This document shows positions 53,271 to 64,000 of a stretch of DNA of 64,000 nt, piece after piece. This DNA is from Burkholderiales bacterium (lineage in GTDB: Bacteria > Pseudomonadota > Gammaproteobacteria > Burkholderiales > Burkholderiaceae_C): assembly GCA_016191995.1 (NCBI GenBank), contig JACPVA010000103.1, positions 1 through 64,000 of the forward strand, read 5' to 3'. The notes under the pieces are model-generated. The model did no database searches. It saw only the letters and a list, made by a program, of their open reading frames with translations, and was not told where the DNA came from. The translations under genes and the position numbers were made by a program. Position 1 is the first letter of the stretch. The number at the start of each line of letters is the position of its first letter.

Positions 53271-55514
53271 TCAGAACGGCGCGTTATCGTCGCAAGTGTT
53301 GATGGCCGTCACCCCGCCTGTAACACGGTCGATCGTTGCAACGCGCCACCATGCATCGGTCGCGGCCGAGTTACAACTCGCGGGTGCGGTCCAGGTGGCG
53401 ACTTGAACCCCGTTTCGATAGACGCGAACCCTGGCCCGGACGGTAGGCATACGCCCCCAGTAAGGCCGGTTGACAGCGATTTCATAATTAGTATAGGCAC
53501 CGAAATCCATCAAATCCCTTATATGCACGGCTTCGCCGGGTGTATCATAATAATAAGAGTCGCGTGTGAGCCGGCCCCAGATATCACCAGTATTTGCGTA
53601 AGAGACGACCGATCCATCGGGCCGCCTCATGAAAAGATCGAGTTCTGCGCCGCGGGTGACGGTATCGGTGCAGTCCTCCAGACCAAAAACGCACTCGGCA
53701 CGGTAGGGATACATCGAGTCCCACTCAAGCGTGACGAGGATGTCCTCGAACGGGGCCGTCTCGACTCGTTTGAGCGCGAGGAAGACTGGATCCACGGCGC
53801 TGACATAGTTGGCAGCCGTCGTCACCGACTGCACCCGTGGAGCATAGCCCTTCTTGGCGTAGTTTATGGAATAGCTCGTCGAGGGATTGAGCCCATCGAT
53901 CACGAAAAATCCGTACTTGTTCGTGACGCCGCTCTTGACGACCGTCCCCGTTGCGCTGTCCTTGACGGTGATCTTGACCCTTTCGACCGGCTGCAGTGGT
54001 CCATAGATGGCGCTCCCGGTATCCCAGCCTCCCGATTCCGGATTGACGACATATCCAGCAAAGCCGGGTGTCGTCGACGTCGAGAAGACCTTGCCCAAGT
54101 GGATACGCCGCAGACCGGATGGCCAACCCTTATTCGTGCCGATCGTAATCGCATTATTGGCGATCCGGGTCTTGACCGTCGCCGCATCTAGGGTCGGGAA
54201 CTGCGCCCAGACGCGTCCGGCGGAACCCGCCACCACCGGGGAGGCCATCGATGTGCCACCCCACGCCTGGTAATAGGGCCAAGAGAGCGTTGTCGACCAG
54301 ATGAAAATACCGGGTGCGATGATGTTCGTATATTGCGATCGCGTGTTGGTAAAAGATGTGGCGTAGTCATTGGGATCCGATGCGCCGACCGAAAACCCCG
54401 TCGCGAGTGCATTCGCGATCGCCGCAGGGATGTAAGTCAAGAAGCCTCCGCAATTCATCGGGTCGTATTGGCAGTAGACGTAAGTTTGATCGTTTTCGTT
54501 GCCCGCGGCGACAACGATGAGCTTGTTGTTGGCGCCAACATCGTCCAGCAGCGCATCCATCTCGATATATTCTAGGCTGTTTGGGTCGGCCACCCCGCCC
54601 AGACTCATGTTGAGAACTCCGCGCGCCCCGGTACTGCCCGCGAGGCGATCGATCGTCCGGTCGGCATAATCGATACCGGCCATGATCGAAAACCACGACC
54701 CAGAACCCATATCGTCGAGTACCTTGACGGGCAGGATCGTGCAATCCGGACATACGCCATGCACGCCCTCGAGATTGTTGCTGCTGGCACTGACGATGCC
54801 GGCGACATGGGTACCATGGCCATTATAATCGTAAGACCACCAGTTCCAATCAATGAAATTATAGCCATCATTCAAGAGCACGCGGCCATAAAGATCCATG
54901 TGATCGTAGGCGACCCCGGTGTCCAGCACGGCGACGATAGGGGCGCTCGATCCAAGACCGCTGGAGGTGTTGAGTTCCGAGATCTTCGCCAGATGCCATT
55001 GGTGGCCGACGAAGGGGTCGTTCGTGGCATGCTGCACATTGGGGCCATCCTCCCCTGGGGTCAGTGCGCCCGCAGCGCCACGCGTCTTGGCCTTGATCGG
55101 CCAGCTGGGCTGCATCTTCTCCGGAATGTGGAAGAGCGTGTTCGAGAACGCACCCTGAACCACGTTCCGTTGACTCTGCAGTGTCGCCAAAACGGTTTGT
55201 GCCGAAGCCGCACCGCCCGAGGCCACCGTCGGTACATCCAGTAGGTAGAGATTGCGTCGTTCGATCACGCCGACGATGCGGCCGCCGAGCGATCGGGCGA
55301 GGGCGTCGATCGTGTCCCGTGCTGCGCTAGGCTGCGCCTTGACGACATATTGGGATGGAATAACGCGCTCCAATCTGGACAACACCTCGGCCCGCGCGGC
55401 CTCGATGCCACCTTGGGCCGCTTGCGGATTCGCGGACGCCGCTGCCGACGCCAGAGCCGCGCATACGCCAGCAAATCGAATCAGCGTTGCTGTCAAGGAT
55501 ACCCCTGTATTCAT
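53271..55514 (-). CDS. Secreted subtilisin-like serine protease (S8 family)
   Basis: A 747-residue exported protease. Signal peptide residues 1-28; pro-region with an inhibitor-like fold (SQYVVKAQPSAARDTID); catalytic domain about 190-430 with Asp198 (VLDTG), His233 (GHGTHVAGI), oxyanion Asn339 (AAGNEND) and Ser422 (GTSMASPVVAG). All four key residues are present. A carboxypeptidase-regulatory-like beta domain follows (about 495-570, SGVTNKYGFFVIDGLNPSTS) and an unassigned C-terminus. Cysteines near 255/258 and 348/355 may form disulfides. It is on the same strand as the two secreted paralogues downstream of it in coordinate, but each has its own leader. Confidence 0.93.
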   Translation of the reverse strand: MNTGVSLTATLIRFAGVCAALASAAASANPQAAQGGIEAARAEVLSRLERVIPSQYVVKAQPSAARDTIDALARSLGGRIVGVIERRNLYLLDVPTVASGGAASAQTVLATLQSQRNVVQGAFSNTLFHIPEKMQPSWPIKAKTRGAAGALTPGEDGPNVQHATNDPFVGHQWHLAKISELNTSSGLGSSAPIVAVLDTGVAYDHMDLYGRVLLNDGYNFIDWNWWSYDYNGHGTHVAGIVSASSNNLEGVHGVCPDCTILPVKVLDDMGSGSWFSIMAGIDYADRTIDRLAGSTGARGVLNMSLGGVADPNSLEYIEMDALLDDVGANNKLIVVAAGNENDQTYVYCQYDPMNCGGFLTYIPAAIANALATGFSVGASDPNDYATSFTNTRSQYTNIIAPGIFIWSTTLSWPYYQAWGGTSMASPVVAGSAGRVWAQFPTLDAATVKTRIANNAITIGTNKGWPSGLRRIHLGKVFSTSTTPGFAGYVVNPESGGWDTGSAIYGPLQPVERVKITVKDSATGTVVKSGVTNKYGFFVIDGLNPSTSYSINYAKKGYAPRVQSVTTAANYVSAVDPVFLALKRVETAPFEDILVTLEWDSMYPYRAECVFGLEDCTDTVTRGAELDLFMRRPDGSVVSYANTGDIWGRLTRDSYYYDTPGEAVHIRDLMDFGAYTNYEIAVNRPYWGRMPTVRARVRVYRNGVQVATWTAPASCNSAATDAWWRVATIDRVTGGVTAINTCDDNAPF

Positions 55515-58241: not shown

Positions 58242-59243
58242 ATGCTGCCGACTTCGACGCTCTTCTTCGTCCACATCCCCAAGACCGCTGGCACCAGCTT
58301 TCGGCGTTCGATTGCCGACGCAGTCGGTGACGGGCATTGCCACTTCGACTACGGGCCGAGTAGCTCGGAGACCTCGCCACTGGTGAAGCAGCTCGCCTAC
58401 GACGAGCCCGACCTGTTTCGGCTTCAGCAAGCGCTCGCGCGCGCGTCCTGTCGCCTGCTGGCGGGGCATGTCCACGCGGGTCGGTACGCCCCGCTCGTCC
58501 CTGCGGCCCGGGTGGTCAGCTTCGTGCGCGACCCAGTGCAGCAGGTCATGTCACACTACGAGCATCAGCGCCTCCATAACCGCTACCCTGGCTCCTTGGA
58601 GGATTTCCTGCGCGGTCCGCTGGGCCCCGGCTTTCAAGCGCGTGTGCTTGCGGCGCTGCCAATCGAAGCCTTGGGCTTTGTCGGTGTGACGGAACGCTAC
58701 GAAGACAGTCTGCGCGCATTCAGCACGGCCTTCGGCATCACGCTTGAGGTTCGGCGCCTGAACCTCAACCCGTCTCGCGCCCAGGGCGCCTTTCCGGCGC
58801 CTGCTTACGCGGTGCCCGATGAATTGCGCGGGCTCATGGAAGAGCGCGGTGGGCCCGACCAGGTGCTTTATCAGAGGGCCAATGCCCTGCTCGACGCACG
58901 TCTGGAGGCCATGGCGGCCGCACAACCGTTCGTGCACGGCGCACTTACCGCTGTGGTGCCGACGCACATCGGCGGCTTCGCCTATCTGACCGGCAGTCAG
59001 AAGCCGGTGCGGGTGCAGGTCCTCGTCAATCGCCGCATCGTTCGCGAGGTATTGGCCACCGCCGACCGCCCGGCGCTGCGCGCCCTCAAGGTGCCGCGCA
59101 ATGCCTTCGTCGGATTTGACTACCGTCCCGCCGAGCCACTGGCTGTGGGAGACAGTGTCTCGGTCCGCGTGGCGGCCACCGGCCAGTTGCTGGGTGAAAT
59201 CGATCTGTTTGCGCCCAAGGAGCGTCGCGGCCAAAGGTCATGA
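58242..59243 (+). CDS. Sulfotransferase family protein with C-terminal beta domain
   Basis: A 333-residue protein. The sulfotransferase domain (1-215) has FFVHIPKTAGTSFRRSI (phosphosulfate loop, residues 8-24) and VVSFVRDPVQQVMSHYEHQR (3'-phosphate motif, about 91-110). The C-terminal 100 residues (about 232-325) are a small beta domain, GGFAYLTGSQKPVRVQVLVN ... FVGFDYRPAEPLAVGDSVSV, resembling the N-terminal domain of the glycosyltransferase at 43620 (G-x-GWAF, later GFHF). Starts ATG 58242. Shared accessory domains argue that both act on the same glycan, which is inference. Confidence 0.85.
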   Translation: MLPTSTLFFVHIPKTAGTSFRRSIADAVGDGHCHFDYGPSSSETSPLVKQLAYDEPDLFRLQQALARASCRLLAGHVHAGRYAPLVPAARVVSFVRDPVQQVMSHYEHQRLHNRYPGSLEDFLRGPLGPGFQARVLAALPIEALGFVGVTERYEDSLRAFSTAFGITLEVRRLNLNPSRAQGAFPAPAYAVPDELRGLMEERGGPDQVLYQRANALLDARLEAMAAAQPFVHGALTAVVPTHIGGFAYLTGSQKPVRVQVLVNRRIVREVLATADRPALRALKVPRNAFVGFDYRPAEPLAVGDSVSVRVAATGQLLGEIDLFAPKERRGQRS

Positions 59244-59387: not shown

Positions 59388-59938
59388 TCACTCTTTGACG
59401 CTTCGACCTCGGCCGCGATCGTAGTGCTCCTTGGCTTGCCGATCGGTGGAGTCAAAGACCTTCTGGCTGTAAGGAAACCCCGCGACCGACGCTCGCCCGC
59501 GCCTTCCCTTCGCCTCATAGTCGGCAAGAGAGCGAACGTAGTAGTGATTGATCCACGCATGGACGTGCGAGGGCGGCTCGGAGAAGGGGCCCTGGACCGG
59601 GATCCCCAACTCGTTGACCGGAAGCCTTCCGTTCCGGAACACGCAGAAATGGGCATTGTGCAGGGATTTCACCGCCGCCACCCGCGAGATCGTCTTCACG
59701 TGCTTGTGCACAGGCGCCGCTCTTTGGAGGCACCGGTCGAAGGTTGCGAAGACGTCTCCGTCGGGCGGGGGCTCCTTGCGGCCCGAGGAGCCGAAGTTCA
59801 ACCAGTGTAGGCATACTCCGACTTCCTCCGGGTATCCATCGAGGAATTCCGGGAGTGTTCGCTCCGGGATGACGATGAACTCGTCGTCGTCGATGAGGGC
59901 AGCCCACTCGAATCCTCCTGCCTTGATGACGTCCATGC
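59388..59938 (-). pseudogene. GT92-like glycosyltransferase, C-terminal part (split by IS21)
   Basis: The 3' half of a glycosyltransferase gene interrupted by the IS21-family element. The part after the junction encodes 181 residues beginning DVIKAGGFEWAALIDDDEFI, where DDDEF is the metal-binding DxD motif of the GT92/DUF23 or Glyco_tranf_2_4 group, and includes HKHVKTISRV and NAHFCVF. The 5' half lies at 62878-63094. When the IS and one copy of the CCATGC target duplication are removed, codon Met72 of the 5' part joins GAC of the 3' part in frame. The reconstructed protein is 253 residues. No start or promoter remains for this half, unless the IS provides one. Confidence 0.88.
59933..59938 (+). 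repeat. Target-site duplication CCATGC, left copy
   Basis: The 6 bases immediately before the left TG of the IS element are CCATGC, identical to 62878-62883 immediately after its right CA. IS21-family elements generate short duplications of this size. Both copies lie in the disrupted GT92-like gene. Confidence 0.85.
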
Positions 59939-59942
59939 TGCG

Positions 59943-60026
59943 TATTTCGGAGGAGCGTGACCGCCCGTTTCGGCATCGTGACCGCCGAATTCGGGAGCGT
60001 GACCGGTCATTTCGGTAGCGTGACCG
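59943..60026 (+). repeat. IS21 left-end 21-bp repeats, four copies
   Basis: Four head-to-tail 21-bp units starting at 59943, 59964, 59985 and 60006, each ending CGTGACCG and sharing TTTCGG or a close variant. IS21 left ends normally show a few such repeats; four regular units are clear here. They are presumed IstA binding sites. Confidence 0.85.
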
Positions 60027-60142
60027 ACGGACGTCTGGTATCCGCCGGAAGGCGGTCGCCGGCCTGTCAATGGGCTCGGTGCTGGTGTTGCGTATGAACC
60101 ACTGCGGCGGCATAGCGTCACGGCCTTTTGGCCGGAGCGCCG

Positions 60143-61669
60143 ATGCCGCAGCAACGAATGGACATACGCATGATCAAGGACATCCTCAGACTCAAGTACA
60201 GCGCCGCGCTGTCGCACGAGGCCATCGCGCACAGCCTCGGCATCTCCAAGGGCGTCGTCGCCAAGTACCTCGGCCTGGCCGGCGCCGCCGGCCTGGACTG
60301 GGCCACCGTGGCGGACCTCGACGAGGCCGGGCTGGAGCGCCGGCTGCTGGGCCGCAGCATCGCCGAGACCCAGGTGATCGAGCCCGACTTCGCCCGCGTG
60401 CATGTCGAGCTGCGCCGCAAGGGCGTCACGCTGATGCTGCTGTGGCAGGAGTACCGCGCCGCCCATGAAGGCCGGCGTACCTGGGCCTACACCCAGTTCT
60501 GCGGGCACTACAAGACCTTCGCCAAGACCCTGAAGCGCTCGATGCGCCAGCACCGGCGCGCCGGCGAGAAGCTGTTCATCGACTACGCCGGCTCGACCCT
60601 GGCGCTGGCCGACGGCTCGCGCGCACAGGTCTTCGTCGCCGCCATGGGGGCGTCGAGCTACACCTTCGCCTGCGCCACGGCCGACCAGAGCATGCGCTCG
60701 TGGCTGGGCGCCATGGCGCGGGCGCTGAGCTTCTACGGCGGCTGCCCGCAGCTGATCGTGCCCGACAACCCGCGCTCGCTGGTCTCGGGCGCCTGTCGCT
60801 ACGAGCCCAAGCTCAACGAGACGGTGCGCGACTTCGCCCGCCACTACGCCGTCTCGATCCTGCCTGCGCGCCCGTATTCGCCCAAGGACAAGGCCACCGC
60901 AGAGTCCGCCGTGCAAGTCGTCACCCGCTGGATCCTGGCGCGGCTGCGGCACGCTGTGCTGGCCGACGTGCACGCCGCCGACGCGGCGATCTCGGCGCTG
61001 CTGGCGTCGCTGAACGAGCGGCCGTTCCAGAAGCTCGACGGCAGCCGCGCCAGCCTGTTCGCCACGCTGGACGGCCCGGCCTTGACGCCGCTGCCGGCGC
61101 AGCCCTGGCAGTGGGCCACCTTCAAGACGGTCAAGGCGCACATCGACTACCACGTCGAGGTCGAACACCACCGCTACAGCGTGCCGCATTCGCTGGTGGG
61201 GCTGGAGTTGGAGGCGCGCGTCACCGACGCGCTGGTGGAGCTGCTGCACCGCGGCCAGCGCGTGGCCTGCCACGCCCGCAGCCGCCGCCGCGGCGGCTTC
61301 ACCACGGTGGACGCGCACATGCCCGCAGCGCACCGGGCGCACAAGCAGTGGACGCCCGAGCGGCTGATCCACTGGGGCGGCGGCATCGGCCCGAACACGG
61401 GCCAGTTCGTGGCTCAGCTGCTGCAGCGCTTCAAGCATCCCGAGCACGGCTACCGCAGCTGCCTGGGCCTGCTCAGCCAGGCCAAGCACTACGGCCCGGC
61501 GCGGCTGGAGGCGGCCTGCAAGCTGGCCCTGGAGCTGCGCGCCGGGCACTACCGCCACGTGCGCGACATCCTGGCCAACGGGCGCGACCTTGTCCCCCGC
61601 AGCGGGCCTGCGCCGGAGTGGGTGGCGCCCGTGCACGACAACGTGCGCGGCGCGGCCAACTACCACTGA
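60143..61669 (+). CDS. istA: IS21 transposase IstA
   Basis: DDE transposase of 508 residues. An N-terminal HTH (ILRLKYSAALSHEAIAHSLG near residue 16) precedes the catalytic core with FIDYAGSTLAL (first Asp), IVPDNPRSLV (second Asp) and DKATAESAVQVVTRWILARL (Glu). The C-terminal part has HYSVP-like YSVPHSLVGLELEARVTD. I start at ATG 60143; ATG 60158 and TTG 60128 are near alternatives. It is followed after 71 bases by istB. Reading frame is intact. Confidence 0.95.
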   Translation: MPQQRMDIRMIKDILRLKYSAALSHEAIAHSLGISKGVVAKYLGLAGAAGLDWATVADLDEAGLERRLLGRSIAETQVIEPDFARVHVELRRKGVTLMLLWQEYRAAHEGRRTWAYTQFCGHYKTFAKTLKRSMRQHRRAGEKLFIDYAGSTLALADGSRAQVFVAAMGASSYTFACATADQSMRSWLGAMARALSFYGGCPQLIVPDNPRSLVSGACRYEPKLNETVRDFARHYAVSILPARPYSPKDKATAESAVQVVTRWILARLRHAVLADVHAADAAISALLASLNERPFQKLDGSRASLFATLDGPALTPLPAQPWQWATFKTVKAHIDYHVEVEHHRYSVPHSLVGLELEARVTDALVELLHRGQRVACHARSRRRGGFTTVDAHMPAAHRAHKQWTPERLIHWGGGIGPNTGQFVAQLLQRFKHPEHGYRSCLGLLSQAKHYGPARLEAACKLALELRAGHYRHVRDILANGRDLVPRSGPAPEWVAPVHDNVRGAANYH

Positions 61670-61740
61670 TGGCACGGGCACCGGCGCCGACGCCGCCGCC
61701 ATCGCCATCGCCGAATCAACCGAATGCAAGGACCCCGAAC

Positions 61741-62523
61741 ATGATGATGAACAACACCCTGGCGCAGCTGCGCGAGCTCAAGCTCGTGGGCATGGCCAGC
61801 GCCGTCGAAGAACAACTCTGCAGCACCGCCAGCACCGCCATGAGCTTCGAGGAGAGGCTGGCGCTGATGGTCGACCGCGAGGTGCACCAGCGTGCCGACA
61901 AGCGCCACGCGGCGCTGCTCAAGCGGGCGCGGCTGAAGTACCCGCAGGCCTGCATCGAGGACGTCGACGGCCGCGCCGGGCGCGGCTTCGAGCGGCCGGC
62001 GCTGATGAGTCTGGCGCTGTCGCGCTGGGTCGAGGACGGCACGGCAGTCCTCGTGACCGGACCCACCGGCTCGGGCAAGTCGTGGCTGGCTTGTGCCCTG
62101 GCGCAATACGCCTGCCGGCGGGGGCGGTCGGCGCTGTACCTGCGCGTGCCACGGCTGGCCGAGGAACTGCGCATCCTGCACGGCAATGGCGGCTTCACGC
62201 GCTGGCTGGCGGCGCTGGCGCGCACCGACGTGCTGTTGCTCGACGACTGGGCGCTGGCAGCCATGGACGGACCGACGCGGGCCGACCTGATGGAGGTGAT
62301 CGACGACCGTGCGGGCACGCGCGCCACGATCATCGCCAGCCAGTTGCCGGTGGAACACTGGCACGCCTGGATCGGTGACGCGAGCATCGCCGACGCGATC
62401 CTCGACCGGCTGCTGTCGCGCAGCCACCGATTGGCGCTGAAGGGCAAGTCGCTGCGTGCGCAAAAGCCCGGGGCGGCCACGGCCGCCATCGGCGGCAGCG
62501 ACACCGCCGACGCGGCGCGCTGA
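61741..62523 (+). CDS. istB: IS21 helper ATPase IstB
   Basis: AAA+ ATPase of 260 residues that selects target DNA and assists IstA. Walker A is GPTGSGKSWLACALAQYACR near residue 107; Walker B is DVLLLDDWALAAMDGPTRAD; the N-terminal IstB segment LAQLRELKLVGMASAVEEQL is standard. Three consecutive ATGs at 61741 make the exact start uncertain by a few residues. Intact. Confidence 0.95.
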   Translation: MMMNNTLAQLRELKLVGMASAVEEQLCSTASTAMSFEERLALMVDREVHQRADKRHAALLKRARLKYPQACIEDVDGRAGRGFERPALMSLALSRWVEDGTAVLVTGPTGSGKSWLACALAQYACRRGRSALYLRVPRLAEELRILHGNGGFTRWLAALARTDVLLLDDWALAAMDGPTRADLMEVIDDRAGTRATIIASQLPVEHWHAWIGDASIADAILDRLLSRSHRLALKGKSLRAQKPGAATAAIGGSDTADAAR

Positions 62524-62832
62524 GCAGCGCAAGCCCTGTGGATTTGTGGACAGGCCCGCTGGCGCGGGCTTCCCGACTGAACGCCCAAGGGCGTTCACCT
62601 GTGGATGGCCGGATGGACAACCCTGCGGGTTGCCCACGCGCCCACCCACAGGCCGTCGGCTGCCCACAAGCTCCACAGGGCCCCACCACGGGAGATGAAG
62701 AAGAACAAGCAATACCCCGCGCGCCGCTCGGGCATCGCAGGGCCGTCAACAGCCGCCAAGGAGGCCATCAACCCGCCAGCCCACCCGCCTTACTACACTC
62801 TCAACCGCGCAACCCAGCACCGAGCCTCGGAT
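62524..62832 (+). other. IS21 right non-coding segment
   Basis: About 310 bases between istB and the right-end repeats. It contains several GC hairpins (GCCCGCTGGCGCGGGC, GCCCAAGGGCG) and repeated TGTGGA/CCACAGG words, but no ORF with support. It belongs to the insertion sequence. Confidence 0.6.
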
Positions 62833-62874
62833 CGGTCACGTTCCCGAAATCACCGGTCACGTTCGCCGAAATGC
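62833..62874 (-). repeat. IS21 right-end 21-bp repeats, two copies
   Basis: Two 21-bp units (62833-62853 and 62854-62874) in inverse orientation to the four left-end units, each starting CGGTCACGTTC. The terminal GCA at 62875-62877 completes the IS end. Confidence 0.85.
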
Positions 62875-62877
62875 GCA

Positions 62878-62883
62878 CCATGC
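62878..62883 (+). repeat. Target-site duplication CCATGC, right copy
   Basis: CCATGC directly follows the IS right end and matches 59933-59938. The pair defines the insertion point inside codons 71-73 of the GT92-like gene. Confidence 0.85.
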
Positions 62884-63094
62884 CATGCCGATAGGCGGTG
62901 AGTTGCCCGTGGACTCCGGGCCAACGCGTGACCGTGACGTGTTCCCCGTACTCGGGGATCGGCTCGAGGCTCTCGTTGTCGTAGATGAAGATATGCGACG
63001 CGCCAATCCCGAGGTGGTAGTCGATCCAAAAGCGGATGTACGGCTCGTAGCAGTCCCTGATGGCGGCGAGTATTGCGATCTTTCCAACGGGCAT
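62878..63094 (-). pseudogene. GT92-like glycosyltransferase, N-terminal part (split by IS21)
   Basis: The 5' half of the disrupted gene: 72 codons from ATG 63094 (MPVGKIAILAAIRDCYEPYI) to Met72 at the IS junction. KIAILAAIRDCYEPYIRFW and HLGIGASHIFIYDNES are typical of the GT92/Glyco_tranf_2_4 N-terminus, where the enzyme scans an acceptor and starts the GT-A fold. The frame runs on into the IS for a further 25 codons before stopping at 62801. With the part at 59388-59938 it rebuilds an uninterrupted gene. An upstream in-frame ATG at 63181 overlaps the next gene and is unlikely. Confidence 0.88.
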
Positions 63095-63179: not shown

Positions 63180-64000
63180 ATGGCGGCGACGGCACTGGTT
63201 GAACGACACGCGGCGAACTTGCACGGGGTCCTGTCGTGCTACGACCGGATCATCATCACCGGCACGTTGCCCGGTGCGTGCTACGCCGGCGGGATGACGA
63301 GCTTTCTGTATTCGCGAGGCATCCGCATCTTCGACTACGCGCGCTTTGCCGAGCCGCTGCGCGATCGCGTGCGACAACGTGCGCAAGAAGTCGCGCAGGC
63401 CAACGGGGTGGCCATCGAGCACGTCGACAAGAGCCACGTGCGCAAGGAGGATCTGGTGGCGCGCGTGCTGGCCGCGCGCGGGCGACGCGCCGGGGCTGGT
63501 GCACGTGATCTCGGCCATGGAGAGCTGCCCGAGCTACCAGCCGTGGTTGAACAAGGCCAAAGGCCACGTTCTCCTGCGCCCGGACACCGGCAAGTGACTG
63601 CACTGCTACTTCTACTTCATCGACCAGGAATTGGGGCTGTGCTACCTGCGCGTGCCCACCTGGGCGCCGTTCACGCTGCAGTTCTACTGCAACGGTCACA
63701 GCGCGCTGGCGCGTTCGCTGCAGCGCGAGGGCATCGAGTTCGTGCAGGAGGACAACGCCTTCTTGCGCATCACCGACCTCGCGCGCGCGCAAGCGCTGGC
63801 CGATAACTTCAACCCCGAACACCTGCACCGCCGCCTGAAGCGCTACGCCCACTGGCTGTGCCCGGTGGCCGACGTGTTCGCGCAGGACGACCGGCACTGG
63901 AGCATCCGTCAGGCCGAGTACTCCACCGACCTGATGTTTCGCAGCCGCGACATCCTGGTGCCGCTGTACGACACGCTGTCGCGCCAGGCGGTGCTGGCCG
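63180..64000 (+). pseudogene. Decayed gene of a repeated hypothetical-protein family (3' end beyond window)
   Basis: The sequence encodes, in pieces, a protein beginning MAATALVERHAANLHGVLSC and continuing RIIITGTLPGACYAGGMTSF. A +1 base in the GGG at 63480-63482 shifts the frame, after which GDAPGLVHVISAMESCPSYQ continues in frame +1. A TGA at 63595-63597 then interrupts what should read GK-Cys-LHCYFYFIDQELG; beyond it the frame stays open to the window end. I recall proteins like this as a widespread family of about 440 residues, often present in several copies and sometimes annotated as MarR-like; function is not known. It could be part of a mobile element. Confidence 0.72.

What the first reader, a model, noticed from the sequence alone, without database searches (positions are those of the whole stretch)
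59388..63094. IS21 insertion split a GT92-like glycosyltransferase gene and the break is exactly reversible
The two halves of the gene (62878-63094 and 59388-59938, minus strand) flank a complete IS21 element with CCATGC duplications. Excising 59939-62877 plus one duplication joins Met72 (ATG at 62881-62879) to GAC GTC ATC in frame and rebuilds a 253-codon gene with an intact DDDEF motif. This is a recent insertion, likely to change the cell-surface glycan, and could be a phase-type switch if the IS excises precisely.
Basis: seen in the sequence. Interest (0 to 1): 0.75.

Follow-up and report, generated by a model that had tools for sequence, protein, structure and literature searches.

The report
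Jumping element splits a glycosyltransferase gene
A common type of bacterial jumping DNA (an IS21-family element) has landed inside a probably borrowed sugar-transferring enzyme gene and cut it in two; this is an ordinary gene inactivation, and nothing shows that it works as an on/off switch.

Summary
A full-length IS21-family element (59939-62877, istA + istB, TG...CA inverted ends, exact 6-bp duplication CCATGC) interrupts a minus-strand gene; counting the duplication once gives one open frame of 253 codons. The halves were one gene: the joined protein passes two Pfam cut-offs that neither half reaches, and the 22 homologous loci aligned to it (11, 11) all run across the junction in one alignment. 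A sibling element in another genome confirms the IS ends. The gene is a Glyco_tranf_2_4/GT92-type glycosyltransferase.

No close uninterrupted relative was found: best identities are 33-38%, and only 3 genomes besides the own matched, of 100. The gene is rare in its genus and probably acquired; the empty site was not seen. "Recent" fits but cannot be dated. "Phase-type switch" rests only on a target duplication, which such insertions normally have; published precise excision of an IS21-family element runs at about 10^-7 (PMC5658596, passages). A cell-surface role is unproven. Ordinary IS inactivation of an accessory gene; low interest.

The parts
62878..63094 (-). 5' part of the glycosyltransferase gene (codons 1-72 and the first base of 73; includes the right copy of the target duplication)
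   Evidence: Pfam PF13704 positions 4-36 at 27 bits, just under its cut-off of 27.5, on its own; 4-98 when joined
59388..59938 (-). 3' part of the glycosyltransferase gene (rest of codon 73 to codon 253 + stop, with DDDEF; includes the left copy of the target duplication)
   Evidence: Pfam PF01697 positions 99-195, below cut-off on its own; joined protein above cut-off
59939..62877 (+). IS21-family insertion sequence, 2939 bp
   Evidence: ends, inverted repeats and duplication; 93% sibling over 1-2939 in genome G058
60143..61669 (+). istA, transposase (508 aa)
   Evidence: NCBIfam NF033546 255.7 bits, cut-off 160; Pfam rve and Mu-transpos_C_2 above cut-off
61741..62523 (+). istB, helper ATPase (260 aa)
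   Evidence: NCBIfam NF038214 217.5 bits, cut-off 200; Pfam IstB_IS21 213 bits
59933..59938 (.). left target-site duplication CCATGC
62878..62883 (.). right target-site duplication CCATGC
59939..59950 (.). left terminal repeat TGCGTATTTCGG
   Evidence: same at both ends of the sibling element
62866..62877 (.). right terminal repeat (reverse complement TGCGCATTTCGG; differs from the left at one base)
63180..64000 (+). decayed neighbour gene beside the glycosyltransferase start, not part of the insertion (continues to about contig position 64698): relative of a 504-aa protein annotated 'ArsR family transcriptional regulator'; frameshift plus TGA and TAG

Best explanation
An IS21-family element (IstA transposase + IstB ATPase) transposed into codons 71-73 of an accessory, probably horizontally acquired glycosyltransferase gene and duplicated 6 bp of target. 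The gene is inactivated: the N-terminal part (nucleotide-sugar side by general knowledge of GT-A folds, recalled) and the DDDEF-bearing part lie on separate frames 2.9 kb apart. SHOWN: element, ends, duplication, continuity of the two halves. INFERRED: loss of function, transposition by the usual IS21 route, acquisition of the gene from elsewhere, and any effect on a surface glycan. Reversal by precise excision is possible in principle but expected to be rare and unregulated.
For: Ends, 6-bp duplication and 253-codon frame. IS21 models above cut-off. Halves score 27 and 13.8 bits against PF13704 (cut-off 27.5) and 18.2 and 17.1 against PF01697 (cut-off 23); joined 40.7 and 32.6 bits, profile positions 4-98 of 98 and 19-195 of 249. 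The 11 loci given (9 distinct, since L033-L035 are alike) and the 11 named loci each align across the junction in one piece (22 of 22; all had been picked for similarity to the C-half or to alignment A1). Sibling element, 93% over its full length, with the same terminal sequence. Acquisition: no close relative in the genus and 61% G+C against 70% for the window.
Against: No close relative with the intact gene was found, so the empty site is inferred, not observed. Around the junction the family varies in length: in 3 of 11 loci (L033-L035) a 3-residue gap falls exactly there, and the other 8 have 1-3-residue gaps within a few residues of it, so homology alone does not fix the join to the residue; the duplication does. 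Low G+C is not peculiar to this gene: the frame at 53271-55514 has 59.0%, so it is weak evidence of acquisition. The genome is a 199-contig draft; no reads were available. No expression or activity data.
Confidence: 0.93

Rival explanations
1. The IS is a phase-type switch: it leaves by precise excision at a biologically useful rate, restores the glycosyltransferase in part of the population and can re-insert.
For: The duplication is perfect and both halves remain open. Precise excision of an IS21-family element (ISS12 from srpA, 7-bp repeat removed) is published at about 10^-7 (PMC5658596, passages); another IS does the same in a capsule glycosyltransferase gene, at low frequency (PMC9038732, passages).
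Against: A perfect duplication is what a fresh insertion normally has. Only the occupied site is in the own assembly. The published IS21-family rate is low for phase variation (my judgement). The right terminal repeat differs from the left by one base.
Confidence: 0.03
2. The insertion makes a new product: the 3' half is expressed from the IS end, either as a 241-codon fusion frame beginning inside the IS (ATG at 60113-60111) or from the ATG inside the duplication (59936-59934).
For: The frame 59388-60113 is open from the IS into the DDDEF half. IS21-family elements can give outward hybrid promoters (PMC9330008, passages).
Against: The product lacks the N-terminal part of the domain (PF13704 positions 4-36); the IS-derived part is an arginine/serine-rich reading of the terminal repeats on the strand opposite istA; no promoter or expression was tested.
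Confidence: 0.02
3. Assembly artefact: the IS was joined wrongly between two unrelated stretches.
For: Draft genome of 199 contigs.
Against: The two flanks are halves of one domain meeting at a 6-bp duplication; no second copy of the IS was found in the assembly, so it is a poor seed for a repeat misjoin (40 of 898 first-look candidates were scored).
Confidence: 0.01

Closest known systems
IS21-family elements of Pseudomonas and Burkholderiales plasmids (some annotated IS1474 or IS1162)
   Same: istA + istB order and IS21 models above cut-off; the 20 rows shown of 366 plasmid records have 66-71% DNA identity over 66-82% of the element
   Different: Nearest full-length sibling seen is 93% identical, in an unnamed species of the same genus. 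In plasmids 1 record falls in the 90-95% band and 11 in 80-90%, but they are not among the rows shown and only 2 of 366 records cover 80% or more of the element
ISS12 (IS21 family) in srpA of Pseudomonas putida S12 (PMC5658596, passages read)
   Same: IS21-family insertion in a coding gene with a short duplication (7 bp there); precise removal restored that gene
   Different: There reversion was selected and measured (~10^-7); here nothing has been observed to revert
ISAba13 in the capsule glycosyltransferase gene itrA of Acinetobacter baumannii (PMC9038732, passages read)
   Same: IS with target duplication in a glycosyltransferase gene
   Different: Different IS (9-bp duplication), a known capsule locus and low-frequency reversion; here the glycan role and reversion are unknown
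Pfam Glyco_tranf_2_4 (PF13704) / Glyco_transf_92 (PF01697) proteins
   Same: Joined protein exceeds both cut-offs
   Different: At most 38% identical to anything found

Membership tests
IS21 family | IstA transposase model (NF033546) above curated cut-off | tested here: met
   255.7 bits against 160
IS21 family | IstB helper ATPase model (NF038214) above curated cut-off | tested here: met
   217.5 bits against 200
IS21 family | Terminal inverted repeats starting TG and ending CA, with multiple internal repeats (feature recalled) | tested here: met
   11 of the first 12 bp match; GTGACCG four times near the left end and CGGTCAC twice near the right end
IS21 family | Short target duplication (5-8 bp in the ISS12 table passages of PMC5658596) | tested here: met
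   6 bp, CCATGC
IS21 family | Transposition activity | not testable with these tools
   needs an experiment
Glyco_tranf_2_4 / GT92-type glycosyltransferase (joined gene) | Pfam gathering score | tested here: met
   40.7 against 27.5 and 32.6 against 23; the halves alone do not reach either. No NCBIfam or PHROGs match for either half
Glyco_tranf_2_4 / GT92-type glycosyltransferase (joined gene) | Conserved DxD-type motif (DDDEF here; role recalled) | tested here: met
   residues 87-91 invariant in 6 of 6 sequences of A1; in the more distant L008-L010 and L032 the motif reads IDGDEF or FDIDEF
Glyco_tranf_2_4 / GT92-type glycosyltransferase (joined gene) | Glycosyl transfer activity | not testable with these tools
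   no activity data; no solved relative by sequence with a meaningful E-value (best 0.017)
IS-mediated phase variation | Both occupied and empty sites in one lineage | tested here: inconclusive
   only the occupied site in the assembly: one match of the C-half and one of the N-half in the own genome; no reads and no close strain could be examined

The most novel reading that the evidence does not exclude
The IS21 element excises precisely in a fraction of cells in nature, so that the glycosyltransferase is switched on and off in the population; this would be a natural IS21-family phase switch of a glycan gene.
Probability: 0.03. Interest if true: 0.45.

Novelty: new member of a known kind. Interest (0 to 1): 0.1.

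Why it matters
Mainly as annotation: two gene fragments that could be annotated separately are one IS-interrupted glycosyltransferase gene, and the locus gives exact ends and a duplication for an IS21 element of this lineage. If the element were shown to leave precisely in the wild, it would be a reversible glycan switch, but nothing here indicates that.

Tried and rejected
Close intact relative: sought with the C-half in 100 relatives (own genome plus 3, at 33%; of these 100, 59 besides the own are of the same genus and hold all 3), in 399 genomes drawn from the order (E <= 1e-6: own plus 1, at 34%), in genome contigs (32 stretches matched, 0 relatives; with alignment A1: 317 stretches, 11 relatives at 25-37%), in plasmids (18 records, 28-34%) and in viral contigs (7 of 7 stretches, 29-38%); with the N-half in 61 genomes (only the own). 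None is close. The 18 plasmid matches were not fetched or aligned across the junction.

Empty locus in relatives through the neighbouring genes: the sulfotransferase-like gene at 58242 matches, at E <= 1e-10, in 1 of 81 genomes of the genus, the own, so synteny cannot be used. The ArsR-like neighbour matches in 8 of 81, the own included; those loci were not compared for synteny.

Second IS copies in the own genome: five short matches of 33-95 bp besides the element itself (40 of 898 first-look candidates scored).

Left-end-only IS matches (1-137 to 1-299) in four other genomes (G026, G042, G035 and G058): two of them (L023, L027) were checked and match istA only over its first 25-32 codons. 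Taken as remnants, not pursued.

PHROGs gave no match for 5 proteins. PDB by sequence gave no usable relative (7 sequences at E <= 1, best 0.017).

Literature: searches (15 of 38 papers listed; 12 of 222; 8 of 52) are the only paper searches; none of the 8 listed is about an IS21 insertion in a GT92-type gene by title or abstract start. That does not show it is unpublished. Three papers were looked into by passages only.

Full report
OBSERVATION. The left flank ends in CCATGC (59933-59938), the element starts TGCGTATTTCGG at 59939 and ends CCGAAATGCGCA at 62877, and CCATGC follows at 62878-62883. Of repeat lengths 4 to 13, only 6 matches. The terminal repeats agree at 11 of the first 12 positions, and repeated blocks with GTGACCG follow inside the left end, with the inverse near the right end. 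The element codes for IstA (508 aa; NF033546, 255.7 bits, cut-off 160) and IstB (260 aa; NF038214, 217.5 bits, cut-off 200), so it is an IS21-family element by curated models.

THE ENDS ARE REAL. In another unnamed species of the genus, G058, a 93% identical element is matched over the full 1-2939; it has TGCGTATTTCGG at both ends, the second of them at the contig's end. A second relative (G104) is matched over 1-2580, to one base short of its contig's end, and starts with the same 12 bases. In the window's copy the right repeat differs from the left by one base. 20 of 81 genomes of the genus, the own included, have some match at E <= 1e-50; only 3 first-look candidates were scored per genome, so copy numbers are not known. 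In plasmids, 366 records match, 354 of them at 60-80% identity, 11 at 80-90% and 1 at 90-95%; only 2 cover 80% or more of the element. Rows shown include Burkholderia and Pseudomonas elements annotated IS21, IS1474 and IS1162.

ONE GENE OR TWO. In frame alone is weak: dropping 0, 3, 6 or 9 bases besides the element all keep the frame. Two better tests agree. First, Pfam: the N-half matches PF13704 positions 4-36 (27 bits, cut-off 27.5), the C-half positions 73-98 (13.8 bits); against PF01697 the halves give 18.2 and 17.1 bits (cut-off 23). The joined protein matches 4-98 at 40.7 bits and 19-195 at 32.6 bits, both above cut-off. Second, tblastn of the joined protein against the 11 loci given (L008-L010, L032-L039; 9 distinct, since L033-L035 are alike) gives one alignment across residue 72/73 in 11 of 11, at 27-35% identity; 11 of 11 named loci also run across it without a stop in the aligned part (25-37%). 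These loci had been picked for similarity to the C-half or to alignment A1. At the junction itself the family varies in length: in L033-L035 a 3-residue gap falls exactly there, and the other 8 of 11 have 1-3-residue gaps within a few residues. So homology shows one gene, and the 6-bp duplication fixes the exact join. The DDDEF motif is invariant in the 6 sequences of A1, less so in the more distant L008-L010 and L032.

NO CLOSE RELATIVE. The C-half finds, at E <= 0.001, the own genome and 3 others of 100 (33% identity; all 3 among the 59 other genomes of the genus in that list), and at E <= 1e-6 the own and 1 other of 399 drawn from the order (34%). The N-half finds only the own of 61. Named relatives are scattered over Acidobacteria, Deltaproteobacteria, Spirochaetales, Firmicutes/Tenericutes and Alphaproteobacteria (record titles; the classes of Methylobacterium and Rhodoblastus are recalled), plus 18 plasmid records (28-34%) and 7 viral contigs (29-38%). 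With 61% G+C against 70% for the window and this scatter, the gene looks acquired; that is inference, and another nearby frame (53271-55514) is just as low (59.0%).

SURROUNDINGS. Next to the gene's start lies a decayed gene (63180 to about 64698 in contig coordinates). It is 74% identical to an intact 504-aa protein of Paraburkholderia phytofirmans plasmid pOLGA1 annotated 'ArsR family transcriptional regulator', with a frameshift near 63480 and one TGA and one TAG. On the other side lies a weakly sulfotransferase-like gene (58242-59243; PF03567 16.8 bits, cut-off 22), found at E <= 1e-10 in 1 of 81 genomes of the genus, the own. A further frame at contig 65186-66910 looks sulfotransferase-like to me by its start motif; this is recalled and no call supports it (no NCBIfam or PHROGs match). 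I gave family searches only to frames from 57732 onward, so whether a glycan-synthesis cluster lies elsewhere in the window was not tested; an effect on a surface glycan is a guess.

MECHANISM. Ordinary IS21-type insertion with inactivation of the target gene. 'Recent' is consistent: exact duplication, open istA and istB, no further stop in the 762-nt joined frame, while the neighbour gene has three lesions. It cannot be dated, and no second copy of the element was found in the assembly, so its source is unknown.

THE SWITCH. IS21-family precise excision has precedent: ISS12 left srpA of P. putida S12 with removal of the 7-bp repeat at about 10^-7 under selection (PMC5658596, passages). ISAba13 left a capsule glycosyltransferase gene, also at low frequency (PMC9038732, passages). 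These show that precise loss can happen, not that it is a switch here. The own assembly holds only the occupied site; no reads could be examined. I put a switch at about 3%.

VERDICT. Observation confirmed. The finding is ordinary: an IS insertion in an accessory glycosyltransferase gene.

Noticed in passing
window 63180-64000, continuing in L011 to about 4698: Pseudogene (frameshift, TGA, TAG) of a 504-aa protein annotated as ArsR-family regulator; stop-free relatives at 76% in G035 and at 77% (partial, at a contig's start) in G022, and at 74% in Paraburkholderia phytofirmans plasmid pOLGA1.
   Followed up: partly
L023 (G026) and L027 (G042); also G035:C709 and G058:C258, C715: Fragments that match only the left end of this IS21 element (137-299 bp, 88-93% identical); in L023 and L027 the match to istA covers only its first 25-32 codons. 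Could be remnants or non-autonomous derivatives; the G058:C715 match reaches the contig's first base and may be cut by it.
   Followed up: partly
L033-L037: In viral-contig records L033-L035, L036 and L037 a glycosyltransferase of the same kind lies at the N-terminus of a longer frame (457-688 aa); what follows looks like a methyltransferase-type domain (my reading, no family search of that part; frames).
   Followed up: no
window 58242-59243: Weak sulfotransferase-like gene with no match at E <= 1e-10 in the 80 other genomes of the genus searched; the stretch around the insertion looks like strain-specific DNA.
   Followed up: partly
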